Shown here piece by piece: positions 703-10,022 of a stretch of 26,687 nt of DNA; within the stretch, counting starts at the first letter, position 1; each line of letters opens with the position of its first letter. Source of the stretch: a virus. The notes beneath the pieces are model-generated. The model did no database searches, was not told where the DNA came from, and saw only the letters and a program-made list of their open reading frames with translations. The position numbers and the translations under genes were made by a program. The stretch spans positions 1-26,687 of IMG/VR virus record IMGVR_UViG_3300029258_004235. One strand, written 5' to 3'.

Positions 703-2394
703 ATGTGGAAAAAGATATCTGCTGTATGTATATTCTTACTACTTGTATTATTTAATTATACTAAGCCAGGTGTTCCTAAGGGTTCTTTAGTAGCTACCAG
801 AAATTCGAGTACTGGTTTTAAGCCTATAGAGAGATTTACTATTTTTGATAATGTAGCTTGCCTAAAAAATGGTGAGTTTAGAAACATTCAGGTAAGTAGC
901 CTTTTAAAATTTAAATCCATTAACGTAATCATTATAAAAACCTCATCAGGGATTCTGTGTTGTTCTAGAGAGGCAAGAATATTCTGTGTTAATAAAAATA
1001 GTTTTATAAGCGTAAAAGAGTTGAGTGTTGGGGATAAGATATTGAGTCATGAGTTAAAGTCTTATGATATTGAAGCGGTAACTGACTTCCAGACTACAGG
1101 TCCTCCTATAAGTTTTTATATTTTGTCTCTAAATAAGGTTCATAATTACTTTCAGGCTGATAGTAATGGTACTGCATTTTTAATGCACAATGTTTATGAT
1201 GCTGTAGTTGAGTTAGTGTTAGAGGCTCCAGAAGTTATTCCTGAGATTGTTAAAGCTGCTCCGGTAGTAGCCGCAGCTACGGCTACTGTGGCAGCAGCTG
1301 CGGCTACAGGTATAGCTGACGCTACTAAATTACTTACACATAAAGGACGGGTAGAGGCTAGAAGGAAAGTTGCTGAAAAAGGTGCAAAACTAGAAAAAGA
1401 GCTACATGATAATAAGCTTGATAAAATGCTAGATAATATTTATGCAAGGCAGTTTCCAGATAGCTTTGAAAATACACATAGTTATGAAGAGAGGCAAAAT
1501 ATTAAGTCTTATTTAGCAGATACTCCTGAAAAGCGTGAAAGGTTCGAAGTCATGCAGGCAAATGGTTATCCACTTGATCAAATTGCAAGTGAACTTGGTA
1601 AGTTTGCTCCTCCTGCTGTAAGAGAACGTTCTAGGAAAGATAAAACAACAGACAGAGAAGCTAAAAGAAAAGCAGAAGAAGATAAAAAGCAGACCGACAA
1701 AGCTGAGGCTGACCGCAAAGCCGATTTAGTTAGTAAAGTTAAAAAGAAGGCTGAGCATATAGCAACAAATACATCTATAGAAGAAACAATTAAGCAGGTT
1801 AATAAGAATTTAGATGCAACTGAAACGGTTACTGCTGCAGCTGTTTTGTCTTCGGCTCAAGAGTCAGCGACTCAAGAGTCAGCGGCACCTGTGTCCTCGA
1901 CACCTGTAACTGATCAGGGGCCTTGTGAGACATTGGGTGATATTGTTGTCGAGCCGATAGTCACTGAAGAAAAAACAGATACTACTTCAACGGGTCCTGA
2001 GCCTATTCCTGATAATACACAGACCAATGAAGTTCCTGTTGATGTGTCTAACGCAAGTATACCTAAGAGCCAAGATAGACCTCGTATGGTACCACGAGTT
2101 ACGCCTACATTCGTTCCAGCTTCATCTCCTCATGTTAATGTTCCAGAATTTACTCCTGCTCCTGCTCCTAGGCCAACACCAAAAGCGTCACATGTTCCGT
2201 CTGGTCCTACTTTTTTTGAAAACGCTTGGGATGCGACCAAGATGGCTGGAATAGGACTTGGAGGTGTTGCGTTGGGTGTTGGTTCTGCGTTGGGTACAGC
2301 GGCGATGATAGCCAAGCAGAAGCTAGACGAGAATGAAGAGAATATTGATGCTTTCTTTAAGTTACTTCAAAGGGCTCAAAATTTAGGTAAGTAA
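703..2394 (+). CDS. Secreted/membrane protein with degenerate N-terminal Hint domain
   Basis: The 563-residue protein starts at an ATG after AAGGAG. Residues 1-20 form a signal sequence or membrane anchor. Residues 23-163 follow the Hint (hedgehog/intein) pattern of polymorphic toxins. GVPKGSLVAT with KPIE stands where the family has C-F-x-x-G-T-x-V and the kPIE motif; VKELSVGDKIL matches the second GD block; VHNYF followed by LMHN at 160-163 matches the C-terminal HN block. The nucleophile Cys is Gly23, and the block-B T-x-x-H reads S-R-E-A, so both catalytic positions look lost while the final His-Asn remains. After it come an Ala-rich stretch (185-205), a charged Lys/Glu region, a Pro/Ser/Thr-rich linker and a Gly/Ala-rich hydrophobic segment (514-537). 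No toxin domain is recognised. A virion or host-envelope role is inferred from its place upstream of the capsid gene. Confidence 0.75.
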   Translation: MWKKISAVCIFLLLVLFNYTKPGVPKGSLVATRNSSTGFKPIERFTIFDNVACLKNGEFRNIQVSSLLKFKSINVIIIKTSSGILCCSREARIFCVNKNSFISVKELSVGDKILSHELKSYDIEAVTDFQTTGPPISFYILSLNKVHNYFQADSNGTAFLMHNVYDAVVELVLEAPEVIPEIVKAAPVVAAATATVAAAAATGIADATKLLTHKGRVEARRKVAEKGAKLEKELHDNKLDKMLDNIYARQFPDSFENTHSYEERQNIKSYLADTPEKRERFEVMQANGYPLDQIASELGKFAPPAVRERSRKDKTTDREAKRKAEEDKKQTDKAEADRKADLVSKVKKKAEHIATNTSIEETIKQVNKNLDATETVTAAAVLSSAQESATQESAAPVSSTPVTDQGPCETLGDIVVEPIVTEEKTDTTSTGPEPIPDNTQTNEVPVDVSNASIPKSQDRPRMVPRVTPTFVPASSPHVNVPEFTPAPAPRPTPKASHVPSGPTFFENAWDATKMAGIGLGGVALGVGSALGTAAMIAKQKLDENEENIDAFFKLLQRAQNLGK

Positions 2395-2500: not shown

Positions 2501-3064
2501 ATGAAAAAGATACTTTTGTTATTATTTTTAAGTTTTAATGCTAGGGCTTCCAACCTTAACGTGCTTAGTTTGGCTGATGTTGATAAGATGTCGCCTATAG
2601 ATAAGCATGTTCTTATGAACAAGGTTGAGAAATCGGCTAACGCTATCGTTGATGGCTTTGATAGCTTTTTGTCTCGCAAAGGTGCTATTAGGGCTACATT
2701 GGTTGGTTTACCAACAATTATGCTTTACTGCTACCTTTTCCCACCAGAACCTGTTGGTGAGCTTTTGGGTAAGATCTTTAATTATGGGATTGATTCTGTT
2801 GCTAATGTTGGTTCAAGGGTCATATCTAAAACATTTAGTAATAGTGATAATCTTTCTGTTTTAGTTTCAAGTATAGGTGAGCTTGAGGGTAAGTATCACC
2901 TTAGTAAAGAGTTGGGTCACACTCAGGCAATGTGGGATATGCTTTATGAAAAGCCTCTGGCTACTATCTCTCTTATGGCATCATCGGCTTCTGATAAAAT
3001 ATGGAACAGTGGGTTGCCGTTTCTTTCGGTGATTTTGGCTAATAAATTATTTAATGTAAGATGA
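2501..3064 (+). CDS. Small secreted/membrane protein of unknown function
   Basis: The 187-residue protein has a classical signal peptide: Lys-Lys, a Leu-rich core, then Ala-Arg-Ala at residues 14-16, a plausible signal peptidase site before Ser17. A hydrophobic segment at about 65-80 (ATLVGLPTIMLYCYLF) follows an Arg/Lys cluster. A weaker hydrophobic stretch lies near the C-terminus (about 168-182). The start is an ATG after the purine-rich site GCGGGGGAATC. I do not recognise a family. It follows the Hint-domain protein and is the last gene before the capsid leader. Two consecutive export-signal proteins here suggest a pair acting at the host envelope or in an entry or lysis step; no lysis motif is visible, so this remains open. 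Confidence 0.75.
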   Translation: MKKILLLLFLSFNARASNLNVLSLADVDKMSPIDKHVLMNKVEKSANAIVDGFDSFLSRKGAIRATLVGLPTIMLYCYLFPPEPVGELLGKIFNYGIDSVANVGSRVISKTFSNSDNLSVLVSSIGELEGKYHLSKELGHTQAMWDMLYEKPLATISLMASSASDKIWNSGLPFLSVILANKLFNVR

Positions 3065-3066
3065 TC

Positions 3067-3155
3067 TAGCATTGTGCCGTTGTTTTTTTAACTAAAAGCA
3101 AAGTGTTTATATATTTTAATGATTTCGGTCTATTTTATTTGTTGGCACAATGCTA
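3067..3155. repeat. 12-bp perfect inverted repeat flanking 65 bp of AT-rich DNA
   Basis: TAGCATTGTGCC at 3067-3078 is repeated exactly as its reverse complement GGCACAATGCTA at 3144-3155. The left arm starts two bases after the stop codon of the preceding gene. The 65-bp spacer is non-coding and contains a T7 run. It could form a long stem in RNA, or be a protein-binding or recombination site. The sequence alone does not decide between these. Confidence 0.7.
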
Positions 3156-3225: not shown

Positions 3226-3255
3226 TTGAATATTCATTCATAATTACTCTATAAT
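3226..3255 (+). promoter_or_regulatory. Sigma70-type promoter for the capsid operon
   Basis: The -35 box TTGAAT (3226-3231) is separated by 18 bp from a perfect -10 box TATAAT (3250-3255). The predicted transcription start is about G3262, exactly where a GGCG stem of the downstream structured RNA begins. It faces the major capsid gene, with about 158 bases of untranslated leader. Confidence 0.7.
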
Positions 3256-3261
3256 AATCTT

Positions 3262-3419
3262 GGCGTAGGACGTTAAAGTCCCGAGCTTCGCCAGTTCAAA
3301 CCGCGTAGAGTGTTTCACTCCGGCCTCGCAAGCCATGACGTATTAGGCTTTAAGTCTAACAGGCTCGTCACCTTATGAAGTTGTTGTTTTAATTAAGAAC
3401 AAATTAATAAGGAAATCTA
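3262..3419 (+). ncRNA. Structured 5' leader RNA of the capsid operon (unclassified)
   Basis: The 158-base leader has several exact stems. GGCG 3262-3265 pairs with CGCC 3289-3292 and encloses GGAC 3268-3271 with GTCC 3278-3281. GAGTG 3308-3312 pairs with CACTC 3316-3320, extended by CCG 3301-3303 with CGG 3321-3323. TGACG 3336-3340 pairs with CGTCA 3366-3370 and encloses the hairpin 3343-3359. GGC at 3322-3324 can instead pair with GCC at 3332-3334, giving mutually exclusive structures. The last 45 bases are unstructured and hold the AAGGA ribosome site. It matches no tRNA cloverleaf that I can build. Likely roles are mRNA stabilisation, regulation of capsid translation, or release as a small RNA. 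Confidence 0.55.
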
Positions 3420-4370
3420 ATGGCAATAGTTTCTACTTCTACAATGCCACCAGCAATTCAATTAGCTTTTGATAATAAGATTTTAGCTACACCAACACAA
3501 AAGAACATTCACGGTCTTTTTGCGTTAAAGGCTACTAAAGCTAAAAGAACTGGTGAGTATTATCGTTTTAAAAGATATGAAGAACTTCCTACAGCATTGG
3601 TACCACTAAGTAATACTGGTGAGACCCCAGCTCCTGTGCAACCAGAATCATTATTTATTGATGCTAAGATTCAACATTATGGACAATGGATGTCGGTTAA
3701 CGAACAAGTTGACTTAAATTCACAAGATCCTGTATTGAATCAGCTATCAATAAGATTTGGTGTAGCACTTAGAAAGACAGAAGACCAGCTTATCAGAAAT
3801 ATGCTTGCAACATCTGCAACATTGGTTAACTGTGTAGCCGGAACAAACGGAAATATACCAAGTAATATTACACGTTATGATATAGATCAAGCAGTTCAGA
3901 CTCTTAGGGGTAATGATGCTGTTTACATTTCAGATTCTATTGAAGGTGCTAATAAATTTGGTACAGGCCCGGTAAGAAATGCATTCTTTGGAATGTGTGA
4001 TACCGACTTATCAACTGAAATTAGCAATACATCAGGTTATATCGATGTTGCTAATTATCCATCTCAGGGTGGAATTTTAAGTTCTGAAATTGGTGCTGTT
4101 GGTGGTATAAGATTCTTAACTTCATCTGGTGGTTCAAAATCAGTTGGAGCTGGAGCTTTAACTGGAACTGACGTTTACAACGTATTTGTCACCGGTATGG
4201 AAAGTTATACTTCTATACAACAAAGCGGTGCAACGGCCAAGTTTATTTACAGGCCTCCAGAACTTAATGATCCGTTGGCTCAGAATTATACTTTGGGTTG
4301 GAAAATGTCTCACGCTTCAAGAATCTTAAATGATCTATGGATTTTAAGATTAGCTTGTACTTTAGCTTAA
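3420..4370 (+). CDS. Major capsid protein, N4 gp56-like family
   Basis: This is the main shell protein of the phage head (316 residues). The family is recognised from the N-terminal layout (short leader, then a FYRFKRYEELP-like beta segment), the T-P-x-P-V motif after a turn, the GQWMSVNEQVDL segment, the RKTEDQLIRNML helix and the C-terminal GWKMSHASRILNDLWILRL signature. These are typical of the N4 gp56-type HK97-fold capsid proteins found in many podoviruses. The start ATG follows AAGGAAATCTA. It is the first gene after a strong promoter and a long structured leader, as expected for the most abundant virion protein. The next gene follows after 13 bases. No scaffold protein or maturation protease is visible next to it. 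Confidence 0.88.
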   Translation: MAIVSTSTMPPAIQLAFDNKILATPTQKNIHGLFALKATKAKRTGEYYRFKRYEELPTALVPLSNTGETPAPVQPESLFIDAKIQHYGQWMSVNEQVDLNSQDPVLNQLSIRFGVALRKTEDQLIRNMLATSATLVNCVAGTNGNIPSNITRYDIDQAVQTLRGNDAVYISDSIEGANKFGTGPVRNAFFGMCDTDLSTEISNTSGYIDVANYPSQGGILSSEIGAVGGIRFLTSSGGSKSVGAGALTGTDVYNVFVTGMESYTSIQQSGATAKFIYRPPELNDPLAQNYTLGWKMSHASRILNDLWILRLACTLA

Positions 4371-7833: not shown

Positions 7834-7926
7834 ATGGGATTTGATCGTTTTTTGATAGCACCATTTGAAGCTGGTCTGCAAAACGACTTATCTCCATGGT
7901 TGCTTCTCGAAAATGCCTTTGCCTAA
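7834..7926 (+). CDS. N-terminal fragment of the large tail protein (out of frame with the rest)
   Basis: ATG 7834 follows GGGGTATTA, just after the previous stop, and encodes 30 residues ending at TAA 7924-7926. The segment FDRFLIAPFEAGLQNDLSPW is the N-terminus I expect for this tail-protein family (I-D-R-F-L-I-A-P-x-E-x-G-L-Q-x-D-L-x-P-W), so the true gene start is here. The rest of the protein lies in the -1 frame, opening with LNSRVRV at 7923. No classic slippery heptamer is visible at the overlap. The likeliest explanation is a small deletion or a sequence error; recoding or restart at ATG 7896 is possible. Confidence 0.6.
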   Translation: MGFDRFLIAPFEAGLQNDLSPWLLLENAFA

Positions 7927-10022
7927 ACTCTAGAGTTAGGGTTTATCTTACTGATACTGATGGTGCCGGAGCAGCTGCTGGTAATATACCTTTGTCTACG
8001 GGCAATATAGGGCAGGCTTTTTCTATTGGTTCTGATATTTTTACCGTTTATCAGGCTACTGGTGCTGTTTATTCTACTGGTTCTGGTACAGGGACATTTG
8101 ATACTACAACTGGGGCTTATACATTTACTGGAGCAAGCGCTGCCGCTGCGATTTACTGGTATCCATCTACTCCTATAATGGCATATTTTAATTACGAAAC
8201 TAAAGATATTTCTAATACCCCGCTTTATGCTTTTGATACTAATTTTGTGTATTCATTTTCTAGTAATTCTTGGTTAAGAAACGGAACAACTGTCTGGCAT
8301 GGAAGTGATAGTGATTTCTTTTGGAGTACTAATTGGACAGGCTCTACGGTAAGTGAGACTTATACATTTGTTTCTAACTTTCATGTAACTAATAAGACTG
8401 GTGCGGCTGTAGGTGCCACAGATGATCCTATTTATTATTTTAACGGTGCTTCTACATGGACAGCGTTTAGTCCTGAGATAACAGCAGCAGCCAATGTGGC
8501 AACAAACAAGGTTTTTACCGCAAAAATAGTTGTTCCTTTTAGGAATCGTTTACTTCTTTTCAATACTATAGAGCAAGATGCCGCTGGTACTACAAATACT
8601 CAGTATCAGAATAGATGTAGGTTTTCTCATAACGGTAGCCCTATAGTTCCTCCGGTTGCGGCTGGAACGTTTAATCATCCTTGGCTGGAACCTAATCAGA
8701 CTTATATTAGTGGTGCAGCAACATATAAAGCTTCTGGTGGTGGTTATATAGATGCGCCAACAAAAGAAGCGATAGTTTCGGCTGAGTTTATAAGGGATAG
8801 GCTTATTGTTCACTTTGAAGATAGTGTCTGGGAGTTAGCTTATAATGGTAACCATATTTTACCTTTTGTGTGGCAGCAACTAAATACTGAAATAGGAAGT
8901 GAGTCTACATTTTCCTCTGTGGGTTTTGATAAGCATATATTAACTGTCGGAACAACAGGTATTCACTCTTGTAATGGGGTAAATGTTGACCGTATAGATG
9001 AGAAGATACCGGATGATATATTTAAGTTAAGATACTCAAATAATGGAAGATTTAGGGTATCTGGAATAAGGGATTTTAATACTGAGTTAGTGTACTGGGC
9101 TTTTCCAGATACGAACGCTGGTCGCTATTCTGAAACTTTTCCTAATAAGGTGCTTGTTTATAACTATAAAGAGCATTCATGGGCATATAACGACGATACA
9201 TTCACTGCTTTTGGGTATTTTGATACTCAGCCAGAGAAGACTTGGGCTGATATGGGTGATATGACATGGGAAGAAGCTGATTTTGCTTGGGATGAAGGAG
9301 TTAATCAGGTAGGTGCTAAAAAGATTGTTGCTGGAAATCAGCAGGGATTTTGTTTTGTAGTTGAGCCTACTTTAAATAGCAATGCTCAAAGCATGCAAAT
9401 AACCAACTTGACTGCTGGTTCTGTTTATACACGATTAGTGATAATAAATCACACTTTAAAGGTTGATGATTATGTTTATATTACGAATATTAATGGGGCT
9501 GTTTTAGCTGATGGTATTTATAAGGTCATAAATGTGACTGACGAGGATACTGTTGATATAGATATAGATAGCTCGGGGACTTATACTGGTGGTGGAACTG
9601 TTTCAAGGGTATCTGAGGTTGATATAAAGTCTAAAGAGTTTAATCCCTATATTAAGCAAGGTAGGGATGTTCATTTATCTAAAATATCTTTTTATGTATC
9701 TAGTAGTACGGCTGGAGAGGTTACTGTTGATTATTATGTATCTTCATCAGGTTTGCCATTAATAAATGAAGGGAATGCTAGTGGTGTATTATTTGGAGAT
9801 TCTCCTAATGTGTTGGATTTATCGCCATATTTTTTGGAGCCTCTGGAATACACTCAACAACGTTACTGGCATAGCTTATCTTTTGAGGCAGAGGGTGAGA
9901 ATGTCCAAATAAGGATACATCATTCAGAGTCTCAGATGAAAGATCCAGCTATATCTCTTTCAGGGTTTACGTTGCATGGTATGATACTTTATACATTGCC
10001 TACAAGTGAGAGGGTTAGATAA
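7896..10022 (+). CDS. Large tail structural protein with FCCH-like domain (5' end frame-disrupted)
   Basis: The frame gives 708 residues from ATG 7896, but that ATG has no ribosome site, and the natural start is at 7834 in another frame. The body is beta-rich: a first domain (TDTDGAGAAAGNIPLSTG, FSIGSDIFTVYQ), a segment resembling a beta-propeller or tube wall with W-x-G-S-D-S-D-F-F-W and EHSWAYNDDTFTAFGYFDTQ, an E1-FCCH-like module at about residues 500-570 (MQITNLTAGSVYTR, VDDYVYITNING) and a C-terminal beta-sandwich ending FTLHGMILYTLPTSERVR. This architecture is common in virion tail proteins of N4 gp56-capsid podoviruses. A tail-tube, nozzle or stopper role is plausible. The stop shares one base with the next start. 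Confidence 0.7.
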   Translation: MVASRKCLCLNSRVRVYLTDTDGAGAAAGNIPLSTGNIGQAFSIGSDIFTVYQATGAVYSTGSGTGTFDTTTGAYTFTGASAAAAIYWYPSTPIMAYFNYETKDISNTPLYAFDTNFVYSFSSNSWLRNGTTVWHGSDSDFFWSTNWTGSTVSETYTFVSNFHVTNKTGAAVGATDDPIYYFNGASTWTAFSPEITAAANVATNKVFTAKIVVPFRNRLLLFNTIEQDAAGTTNTQYQNRCRFSHNGSPIVPPVAAGTFNHPWLEPNQTYISGAATYKASGGGYIDAPTKEAIVSAEFIRDRLIVHFEDSVWELAYNGNHILPFVWQQLNTEIGSESTFSSVGFDKHILTVGTTGIHSCNGVNVDRIDEKIPDDIFKLRYSNNGRFRVSGIRDFNTELVYWAFPDTNAGRYSETFPNKVLVYNYKEHSWAYNDDTFTAFGYFDTQPEKTWADMGDMTWEEADFAWDEGVNQVGAKKIVAGNQQGFCFVVEPTLNSNAQSMQITNLTAGSVYTRLVIINHTLKVDDYVYITNINGAVLADGIYKVINVTDEDTVDIDIDSSGTYTGGGTVSRVSEVDIKSKEFNPYIKQGRDVHLSKISFYVSSSTAGEVTVDYYVSSSGLPLINEGNASGVLFGDSPNVLDLSPYFLEPLEYTQQRYWHSLSFEAEGENVQIRIHHSESQMKDPAISLSGFTLHGMILYTLPTSERVR

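What the first reader, a model, noticed from the sequence alone, without database searches (positions are those of the whole stretch)
3226..3419. Structured capsid-operon leader RNA that starts exactly at the predicted transcription start
A near-consensus promoter predicts G3262 as the first base, which is also the first base of a GGCG/CGCC stem. At least three further stems follow, with two alternative pairings of GGC 3322-3324. Such a compact 110-base fold before the most highly expressed phage gene could stabilise the mRNA, regulate capsid translation, or be a separate small RNA.
Basis: partly seen in the sequence, partly recalled or inferred. Interest (0 to 1): 0.62.

Follow-up and report, generated by a model that had tools for sequence, protein, structure and literature searches.

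The report
Tandem pseudoknots starting phage capsid mRNA
The capsid mRNA of this uncultured phage begins with a row of three tiny knotted RNA folds; the same kind of row, with different letters but the same pairing, precedes the capsid gene in dozens of related phages, so it is a real and apparently undescribed RNA family that probably shields the start of the mRNA and controls how the capsid is translated.

Summary
The leader is real, but it is not one compact 110-base fold. It is three head-to-tail copies of a small H-type pseudoknot: P1 (about 4 bp); an optional P2 hairpin; a 3-4 nt loop segment (PKa) paired to the bases just 3' of P1 (PKb).
Nested folding of the window alone is unremarkable (z -0.63). 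Comparison settles it. Of 70 distinct capsid leaders in related viral contigs, most carry 2-5 such units. Both helices covary (covariation score 0.72 against 0.27 shuffled, largely new loci: 0.52 against 0.23). In units held out from model building and found without requiring pairing, the pseudoknot pairs in 15/28 against 2.5 expected.
A motif scan of IMG/VR that did not use the capsid gene returned capsid leaders in 50-51 of 53 contigs.
The -10 box most often ends exactly 6 nt before unit 1, so the array begins at the transcript's first base. The last unit's PKb tends to be complementary to the Shine-Dalgarno sequence. No Rfam match.
Structure: secure. Mechanism: inferred. Best guess: protection of the 5' end against decay, plus a translation gate formed by the last unit.

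The parts
3226..3255 (+). sigma-70-like promoter: TTGAAT 3226-3231, 18-nt spacer, TATAAT 3250-3255
   Evidence: 10/12 matches; -10 to unit-1 spacing of exactly 6 nt is the clear mode in 70 leaders
3262..3297 (+). pseudoknot unit 1: P1 GGCG 3262-3265/CGCC 3289-3292; P2 GGAC 3268-3271/GTCC 3278-3281; PKa GAGC 3283-3286/PKb GTTC 3294-3297
   Evidence: detector score 18.5; 0 of 2000 shuffles as good; same architecture in relatives
3303..3334 (+). pseudoknot unit 2 (weakest): P1 GCG 3303-3305/CGC 3327-3329; P2 GAGTG 3308-3312/CACTC 3316-3320; PKa GGC 3322-3324/PKb GCC 3332-3334
   Evidence: sequence, by register with units 1 and 3 (UA after P1a, CU before P1b); 3-bp P1 and 3-bp PK, not reported by the detector
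3337..3373 (+). pseudoknot unit 3: P1 GACG 3337-3340/CGTC 3366-3369; P2 TTAGG 3343-3347/TCTAA 3355-3359; PKa AGG 3361-3363/PKb CCT 3371-3373
   Evidence: detector score 15.3; best match of covariance model R1 in the window, 3337-3374, E 0.42
3371..3412 (+). alternative stem CCTTAT 3371-3376 / ATAAGG 3407-3412 that would cover the Shine-Dalgarno AAGGA (3409-3413) and exclude the unit-3 pseudoknot
   Evidence: sequence; PKb-to-SD stems of 6 bp or more in 30 of 56 leaders against 12.9 expected; the window's own stem alone is not significant (0.53 of spacer shuffles as good)
3420..4370 (+). major capsid protein gene (N4-gp56 / phrog_1357 type)
   Evidence: PHROG 1357 E 2.8e-38; Pfam Phage_capsid_4 E 2.6e-6

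Best explanation
The 5' untranslated region of the phage capsid transcript is an array of independently folding mini-pseudoknots that begins at the first transcribed base and ends at the Shine-Dalgarno region. Shown here by comparison: the units, their two interlocked helices, their tandem repetition, their restriction to capsid-operon leaders, and their start at the predicted +1. Inferred: (1) the first unit(s) tie up the 5' end so that it is a poor substrate for 5'-end-dependent decay (pyrophosphohydrolase RppH with RNase E or RNase J), prolonging the life of what should be the most heavily used late mRNA, repeated units giving redundancy; (2) the last unit acts as a translation gate, because its PKb strand is complementary to the start of the Shine-Dalgarno sequence, so a folded last pseudoknot keeps the ribosome site open and an unfolded one lets a stem close over it.
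For: Structure: covariation in both helices, reproduced in 28 held-out units that were found without requiring pairing (outer P1 24/28 against 11.4 expected, PK 15/28 against 2.5). Specificity: 173 units in 18.5 kb of leaders at a threshold giving 4 in shuffled and 4 in reverse-complement leaders, and 87 in 451 kb of other phage DNA. Position: the -10 box ends exactly 6 nt before unit 1 in 22/70 leaders, background about 3; the first base of the array is G or A in 46 of 53 leaders, as expected of a transcription start. The array goes with the transcript start rather than the capsid gene itself: in five phages whose capsid gene follows scaffold directly, units sit before the scaffold gene instead (L017, L051, L093, L301, L305; scores 15.5-17 for four of them and a 15.5/14.5 pair in L305), whereas such scores occur about once per 25 kb elsewhere. 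Translation gate: 30/56 leaders have a stem of 6 bp or more from the last PKb to the SD against 12.9 expected, with arms of up to 12 bp that differ in sequence between phages; the last PKb ends in CUU in 49/83 against 19/124 for other units (part of that set was chosen by a motif containing CUU). Literature: 5' secondary structure stabilises bacterial mRNA because RppH and RNase E need single-stranded 5' ends (PMC3997798).
Against: No transcript, structure-probing or decay data; transcription starts are predicted. One ordinary 5' hairpin would already block RppH, so 5'-end protection does not by itself explain why pseudoknots, nor why 2-5 of them. The SD-closing stem is missing in about half of the leaders. 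G-U pairs are not favoured over A-C mismatches in the pseudoknot (28 against 22), which may mean tight geometry but gives no independent proof that RNA rather than DNA is the acting form. Host and its RNases are unknown.
Confidence: 0.42

Rival explanations
1. Exonuclease-blocking RNA (xrRNA-like): each unit is a ring-type mechanical block to a 5'-to-3' exoribonuclease such as RNase J, used in tandem as in flaviviruses.
For: Same topology as plant-virus xrRNA-D: P1, optional P2, loop segment pairing immediately 3' of P1 (PMC6299227). A flavivirus xrRNA blocks bacterial RNase J1 in vitro, and that virus carries tandem copies (PMC5760640). Mainly shape is conserved: sequences vary while pairing and a few loop positions stay.
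Against: No Rfam match. A block at the extreme 5' end protects only if decay starts from the 5' end. Presence of RNase J in the host unknown. Most relatives lack P2.
Confidence: 0.2
2. Translational operator: a phage protein (capsid, scaffold or another) binds the pseudoknots to feed back on capsid synthesis.
For: Precedent: gp32 of T4 binds a leader pseudoknot (PMC3014915). Arrays were found only before the capsid operon, and repeated shape-conserved sites suit cooperative binding. The last unit touches the SD.
Against: In some phages the element precedes scaffold, not capsid. More distant capsid relatives have none. A start exactly at +1 is not needed for an operator.
Confidence: 0.18
3. cis-acting antitermination RNA, like the put sites of phage HK022 (known to me from memory), that modifies RNA polymerase for the long late operon.
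For: Transcribed first, ahead of a run of same-strand genes 3420-24604; several stem elements near the promoter.
Against: Only the capsid unit has it; placement at +1 and overlap with the SD are not features of put as I know it; no terminator was shown inside the operon.
Confidence: 0.08
4. Riboswitch: each unit senses a small molecule (preQ1-like H-type pseudoknots) and the last unit gates the SD.
For: Small H-type pseudoknot; last unit overlaps the SD-closing stem in about half of the leaders.
Against: Few conserved unpaired bases to form a binding pocket (mainly an A after P1a and a U before P1b); 2-5 copies; no Rfam riboswitch match.
Confidence: 0.05
5. DNA-level feature: tandem operator or repeat array, with the RNA folds incidental.
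For: P1 arms are short inverted repeats in DNA; G-U pairs are not favoured over A-C.
Against: Two interlocked helices covary through many base combinations, strand- and promoter-oriented (173 units on the sense strand against 4 on reverse-complement leaders), starting at +1; a DNA-binding protein would need conserved letters, not conserved pairing.
Confidence: 0.04

Closest known systems
T4/T2 gene 32 leader pseudoknot (autogenous translational operator)
   Same: H-type pseudoknot in the 5' leader of a phage mRNA, upstream of the ribosome site (PMC3014915)
   Different: There a single pseudoknot 67 nt upstream of the start codon, for an ssDNA-binding protein; here usually 2-5 tandem units from +1 to the SD of the capsid operon, in unrelated phages, no protein known
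xrRNA-D of plant dianthoviruses and poleroviruses
   Same: P1, P2 and a pseudoknot from the loop to the strand just 3' of P1; covarying helices with little sequence conservation in them (PMC6299227)
   Different: xrRNA-D has conserved L1 and L2B sequences and lies in 3'UTRs or between genes of RNA viruses; here at the 5' end of a DNA-phage mRNA, units only about 22-38 nt, P2 optional, nuclease resistance untested
Flavivirus tandem xrRNAs
   Same: Tandem shape-conserved pseudoknot elements; one shown to stop bacterial RNase J1 in vitro (PMC5760640)
   Different: Larger ring fold with more elements, located in the 3'UTR
5'-terminal stem-loops of bacterial mRNAs (ompA leader)
   Same: 5'-terminal base pairing that stabilises mRNA against RppH and RNase E (PMC3997798)
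   Different: Plain hairpins, not pseudoknot arrays
preQ1 riboswitches
   Same: Small pseudoknots in leaders, some gating the ribosome site (PMC11625349, abstract only)
   Different: No matching conserved ligand-pocket sequence seen; no Rfam match; multiple copies

Membership tests
Any Rfam 15 family (4227 models) | covariance-model match | tested here: not met
   Whole window at gathering scores: 0. Leaders of window and L013 at E up to 10: 0. Five relatives at E up to 1: only an unrelated lncRNA match at 0.07 outside the leader
xrRNA-D | P1 and P2 helices with a pseudoknot from the loop to the strand just 3' of P1 | tested here: met
   Topology met in all three window units (sequence; covariation of P1 and PK in relatives); P2 absent in most relatives
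xrRNA-D | more than 97% conserved L1 and L2B sequences | not tested
   Plant-virus sequences were not aligned here; Rfam search gave no match
xrRNA-D | blocks a 5'-3' exoribonuclease at the base of P1 | not testable with these tools
   biochemistry needed
T4 gene 32 leader pseudoknot | pseudoknot upstream of the ribosome site in a phage leader | tested here: met
T4 gene 32 leader pseudoknot | precedes a gene for an ssDNA-binding protein that binds it | tested here: not met
   downstream gene is the capsid gene, or scaffold in some phages
preQ1 riboswitch | conserved ligand-pocket sequence / Rfam model | tested here: not met
   no Rfam match
HK022 put antiterminator | relieves termination downstream in cis | not testable with these tools
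   needs a terminator reporter
tRNA or tmRNA | tRNA cloverleaf / tmRNA | tested here: not met
   ARAGORN found none

The most novel reading that the evidence does not exclude
A tailed DNA phage lineage uses tandem, sequence-divergent mini-pseudoknots at the very 5' end of its capsid mRNA as mechanical barriers to bacterial 5'-to-3' decay: the first xrRNA-like elements in a DNA phage, independent of the eukaryotic virus ones, with the last unit doubling as a translation gate.
Probability: 0.2. Interest if true: 0.86.

Novelty: new variant of a known kind. Interest (0 to 1): 0.72.

Why it matters
It is a structured RNA family with strong covariation, no Rfam entry and no description found in the open-access papers searched, sitting at the start of what should be one of the most expressed phage transcripts in a large lineage known only from metagenomes. 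Units of only about 22 nt with two interlocked helices, repeated up to five times, are a natural mutagenesis series for how pseudoknots act on mRNA decay or translation. If the barrier idea holds, exoribonuclease-resistant RNA would extend from RNA viruses of eukaryotes to DNA phages.

Tried and rejected
Single nested fold: not better than shuffles. tRNA/tmRNA: none. Known RNA family: none. BLAST for the leader DNA in cultured phages: nothing relevant. L002 (first relative found) is the same virus, so useless for covariation. MAFFT alignment with bulged P1 units misplaced the bulge, so a bulge-free set was used for the model. A 14-base motif scan returned mostly chance matches, though also several true arrays (L103, L106, L158, L181, L190, L192, L199). 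Loose coremin xrRNA resemblance (GACGUUAAA in unit 1; coremin as printed in PMC10520033): the matching letters fall in P2, which is not conserved in relatives, so treated as chance. G-U versus A-C strand test: uninformative. Two motif-scan contigs without a capsid gene (L234, L252) are chance matches inside a GC-rich ORF. Literature searches for tandem phage pseudoknots, capsid leaders and put RNA: nothing relevant.

Full report
WHAT IS IN THE WINDOW. The window is part of a tailed-phage genome; a longer contig of the same virus (G001, IMGVR_UViG_3300017989_000215, 39,379 nt) carries the identical leader and capsid protein. The gene at 3420-4370 is the major capsid gene (phrog_1357, E 2.8e-38). 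Upstream lies a sigma-70-like promoter, TTGAAT 3226 / TATAAT 3250-3255, which predicts a start at G3262. Plain folding of the leader is unremarkable (z -0.63; -1.02), and Rfam and ARAGORN find nothing.

THE REPEATING UNIT. Reading the leader for internal repeats gives three head-to-tail copies of one plan: P1a, UA, P2 hairpin, C, PKa, two bases ending in U, P1b, a one-base linker (two in unit 2), PKb. Unit 1 is 3262-3297 (GGCG/CGCC; GGAC/GTCC; GAGC/GTTC), unit 2 is 3303-3334 (GCG/CGC; GAGTG/CACTC; GGC/GCC), unit 3 is 3337-3373 (GACG/CGTC; TTAGG/TCTAA; AGG/CCT). PKa lies in the loop closed by P1 and pairs just outside it, so each unit is an H-type pseudoknot. No dinucleotide shuffle in 2000 gave a unit as good as unit 1, and none gave two as good. 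Unit 2 is the weakest and rests on register with the others.

RELATIVES. A capsid profile found 79 further viral contigs with capsid proteins 46-50% identical. Most of their leaders hold two or more such units (70 distinct leaders). Typical units lack P2 and are only 22-27 nt, e.g. GACG UACGA AAGA CU CGUC A UCUU. In 95 distinct leaders the unit count was 0 in 6, 1 in 17, 2 in 25, 3 in 39, 4 in 7 and 5 in 1; these are minimum counts, since weak and long-loop units are missed.

COVARIATION. (a) Units anchored only on CG(T/C)A...TCG, with no pairing required: the two outer P1 pairs form in 96/130 (shuffle mean 50.8, maximum 63) and all four PK pairs in 52/130 (mean 11.8, maximum 23); outside leaders in the same contigs only 1 of 199 anchors has both, against 40 of 130 in leaders. 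(b) 55 aligned units: 94.3% of cells paired against 71.7 shuffled, 127 double changes against 36, covariation score 0.72 against 0.27; sliding the partner by 1-3 columns drops pairing to 33-48%. P1 was used to choose these units, so its 100% is partly by construction; PK was not required, although the subset was picked by hand. (c) Held-out loci: outer P1 24/28 (mean 11.4, maximum 18), PK 15/28 (mean 2.5, maximum 9). (d) Matches of the P1-only model R1 in 34 loci fetched by the motif scan: covariation 0.52 against 0.23, 96 double changes against 33; in this set the last units were pre-selected by a motif that contains part of PK, and a few loci may belong to viruses already seen. The inner PK position (4) is often unpaired. 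Among 159 P1-selected units the three outer PK positions are Watson-Crick in 394 of 477 cells against 226 in shuffles.

SPECIFICITY. A detector for the plan finds 173 units in 18.5 kb of leaders, 4 in shuffled leaders, 4 in reverse-complement leaders and 87 in 451 kb of other DNA from the same contigs. A scan of all IMG/VR contigs with the motif GACGTA-N0-8-AAGNCTCGTCANCTT, which knows nothing of capsid genes, returned 53 contigs. Apart from L234 and L252 (matches inside a GC-rich ORF), the contigs that extend far enough show a capsid gene downstream, sometimes interrupted; L231, L249 and L272 end within a few codons and show only the first capsid-like codons by eye. The contig G001 has the array in one place only. 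Capsid relatives below about 30% identity in cultured phages and plasmids have none in front of the capsid gene.

POSITION. Scoring -10 hexamers at every distance upstream of the first unit, hits of at least 5.5 occur at distance 6 in 22 of 70 leaders and at a mean of about 3-4 elsewhere. The first base is G or A in 46 of 53 leaders. So the array begins at the predicted +1. In five phages where scaffold and capsid genes abut, units sit directly upstream of the scaffold gene instead (L017, L051, L093, L301: scores 15.5-17; L305: two units 15.5 and 14.5), where the control rate for a score of at least 15.5 is 18 per 451 kb. The element therefore goes with the start of the capsid transcription unit rather than with the capsid start codon. 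This was not seen in every phage without a capsid leader (L302, L303 and L310 gave nothing; L220 has a unit-like sequence by eye only).

THE LAST UNIT AND THE RIBOSOME SITE. A stem of at least 6 bp running from the last PKb to the Shine-Dalgarno zone exists in 30 of 56 leaders against 12.9 from spacer shuffles, with arms such as CTTGAAGTATT/AATATTTCAAG and CTTAGATTGGT/ATCAATTTAAG that differ between phages. The last PKb ends in CUU, complementary to the AAG of AAGGA, in 49 of 83 leaders, other units in 19 of 124; part of the last-unit set was selected by a motif containing CUU, so the contrast is inflated. In the window CCTTAT 3371-3376 can pair ATAAGG 3407-3412, using the same CCT as the unit-3 pseudoknot; alone this is not significant (0.53 of spacer shuffles as good). 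Since the two pairings exclude each other, a folded last unit would leave the Shine-Dalgarno free.

MECHANISM. Best supported: a 5'-terminal, self-folding protective array with a translation gate at its 3' end. RppH and RNase E need single-stranded 5' ends, which explains stabilisation by 5' structure (PMC3997798); an mRNA whose first base is in P1 offers none. Why pseudoknots in tandem is not explained by that alone. The topology matches plant-virus xrRNA-D (PMC6299227), and a flavivirus xrRNA stops bacterial RNase J1 (PMC5760640), so an exonuclease barrier is the most interesting rival. Autogenous control has a phage precedent in T4 gene 32 (PMC3014915). No protein, ligand or nuclease was tested.

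HOST. Unknown. Capsid relatives occur in 8 of 234 genomes from the phylum of a Parachlamydia MAG, several on 35-41 kb phage-sized contigs, against 2 of 380 and 5 of 395 in the phyla of a Saccharibacteria and a Syntrophaceae MAG. These are bins, so this is a hint at environmental chlamydiae, not proof.

NOVELTY. No Rfam match and nothing relevant in ten full-text searches of the open-access library. The literature check is limited to that library.

Noticed in passing
window 3375-3392: Tiny reading frame ATG AAG TTG TTG TTT TAA (MKLLF) starting just after the last pseudoknot and ahead of the capsid start; possible upstream ORF.
   Followed up: no
window 3067-3078 and 3144-3155: Perfect 12-bp inverted repeat TAGCATTGTGCC / GGCACAATGCTA, 65 nt apart, between the end of the 2501-3064 ORF and the capsid promoter; a T run follows the first arm.
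   Followed up: no
L227, L235, L241, L260, L266, L272, L273, L309 and others: Capsid genes right behind the arrays are often split into pieces, some with a LAGLIDADG-like ORF (YGAGIMDADGCF), suggesting introns with homing endonucleases in the capsid gene of this lineage.
   Followed up: partly
L005 11199-13757 (G001 contig of the same virus): 852-aa terminase large subunit whose middle matches an endonuclease family (phrog_4645), suggesting an intein or inserted homing endonuclease.
   Followed up: no
window 703-2394: 563-aa ORF whose first part (CLKNGEF...VHNYFQADSNGTAFLMHN) looks like a Hint/intein-type domain; no Pfam or PHROG match.
   Followed up: no
window 7896-10022: ORF is 5'-shortened relative to the 759-aa version in the same virus (L004 16651-18930), so the window copy probably has a frameshift or sequencing error.
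   Followed up: partly
G228, G167, G146, G126, G002 contigs: Phage-sized contigs (35-41 kb) with this capsid type binned in chlamydial MAGs; tailed DNA phages of environmental chlamydiae would be of interest.
   Followed up: partly
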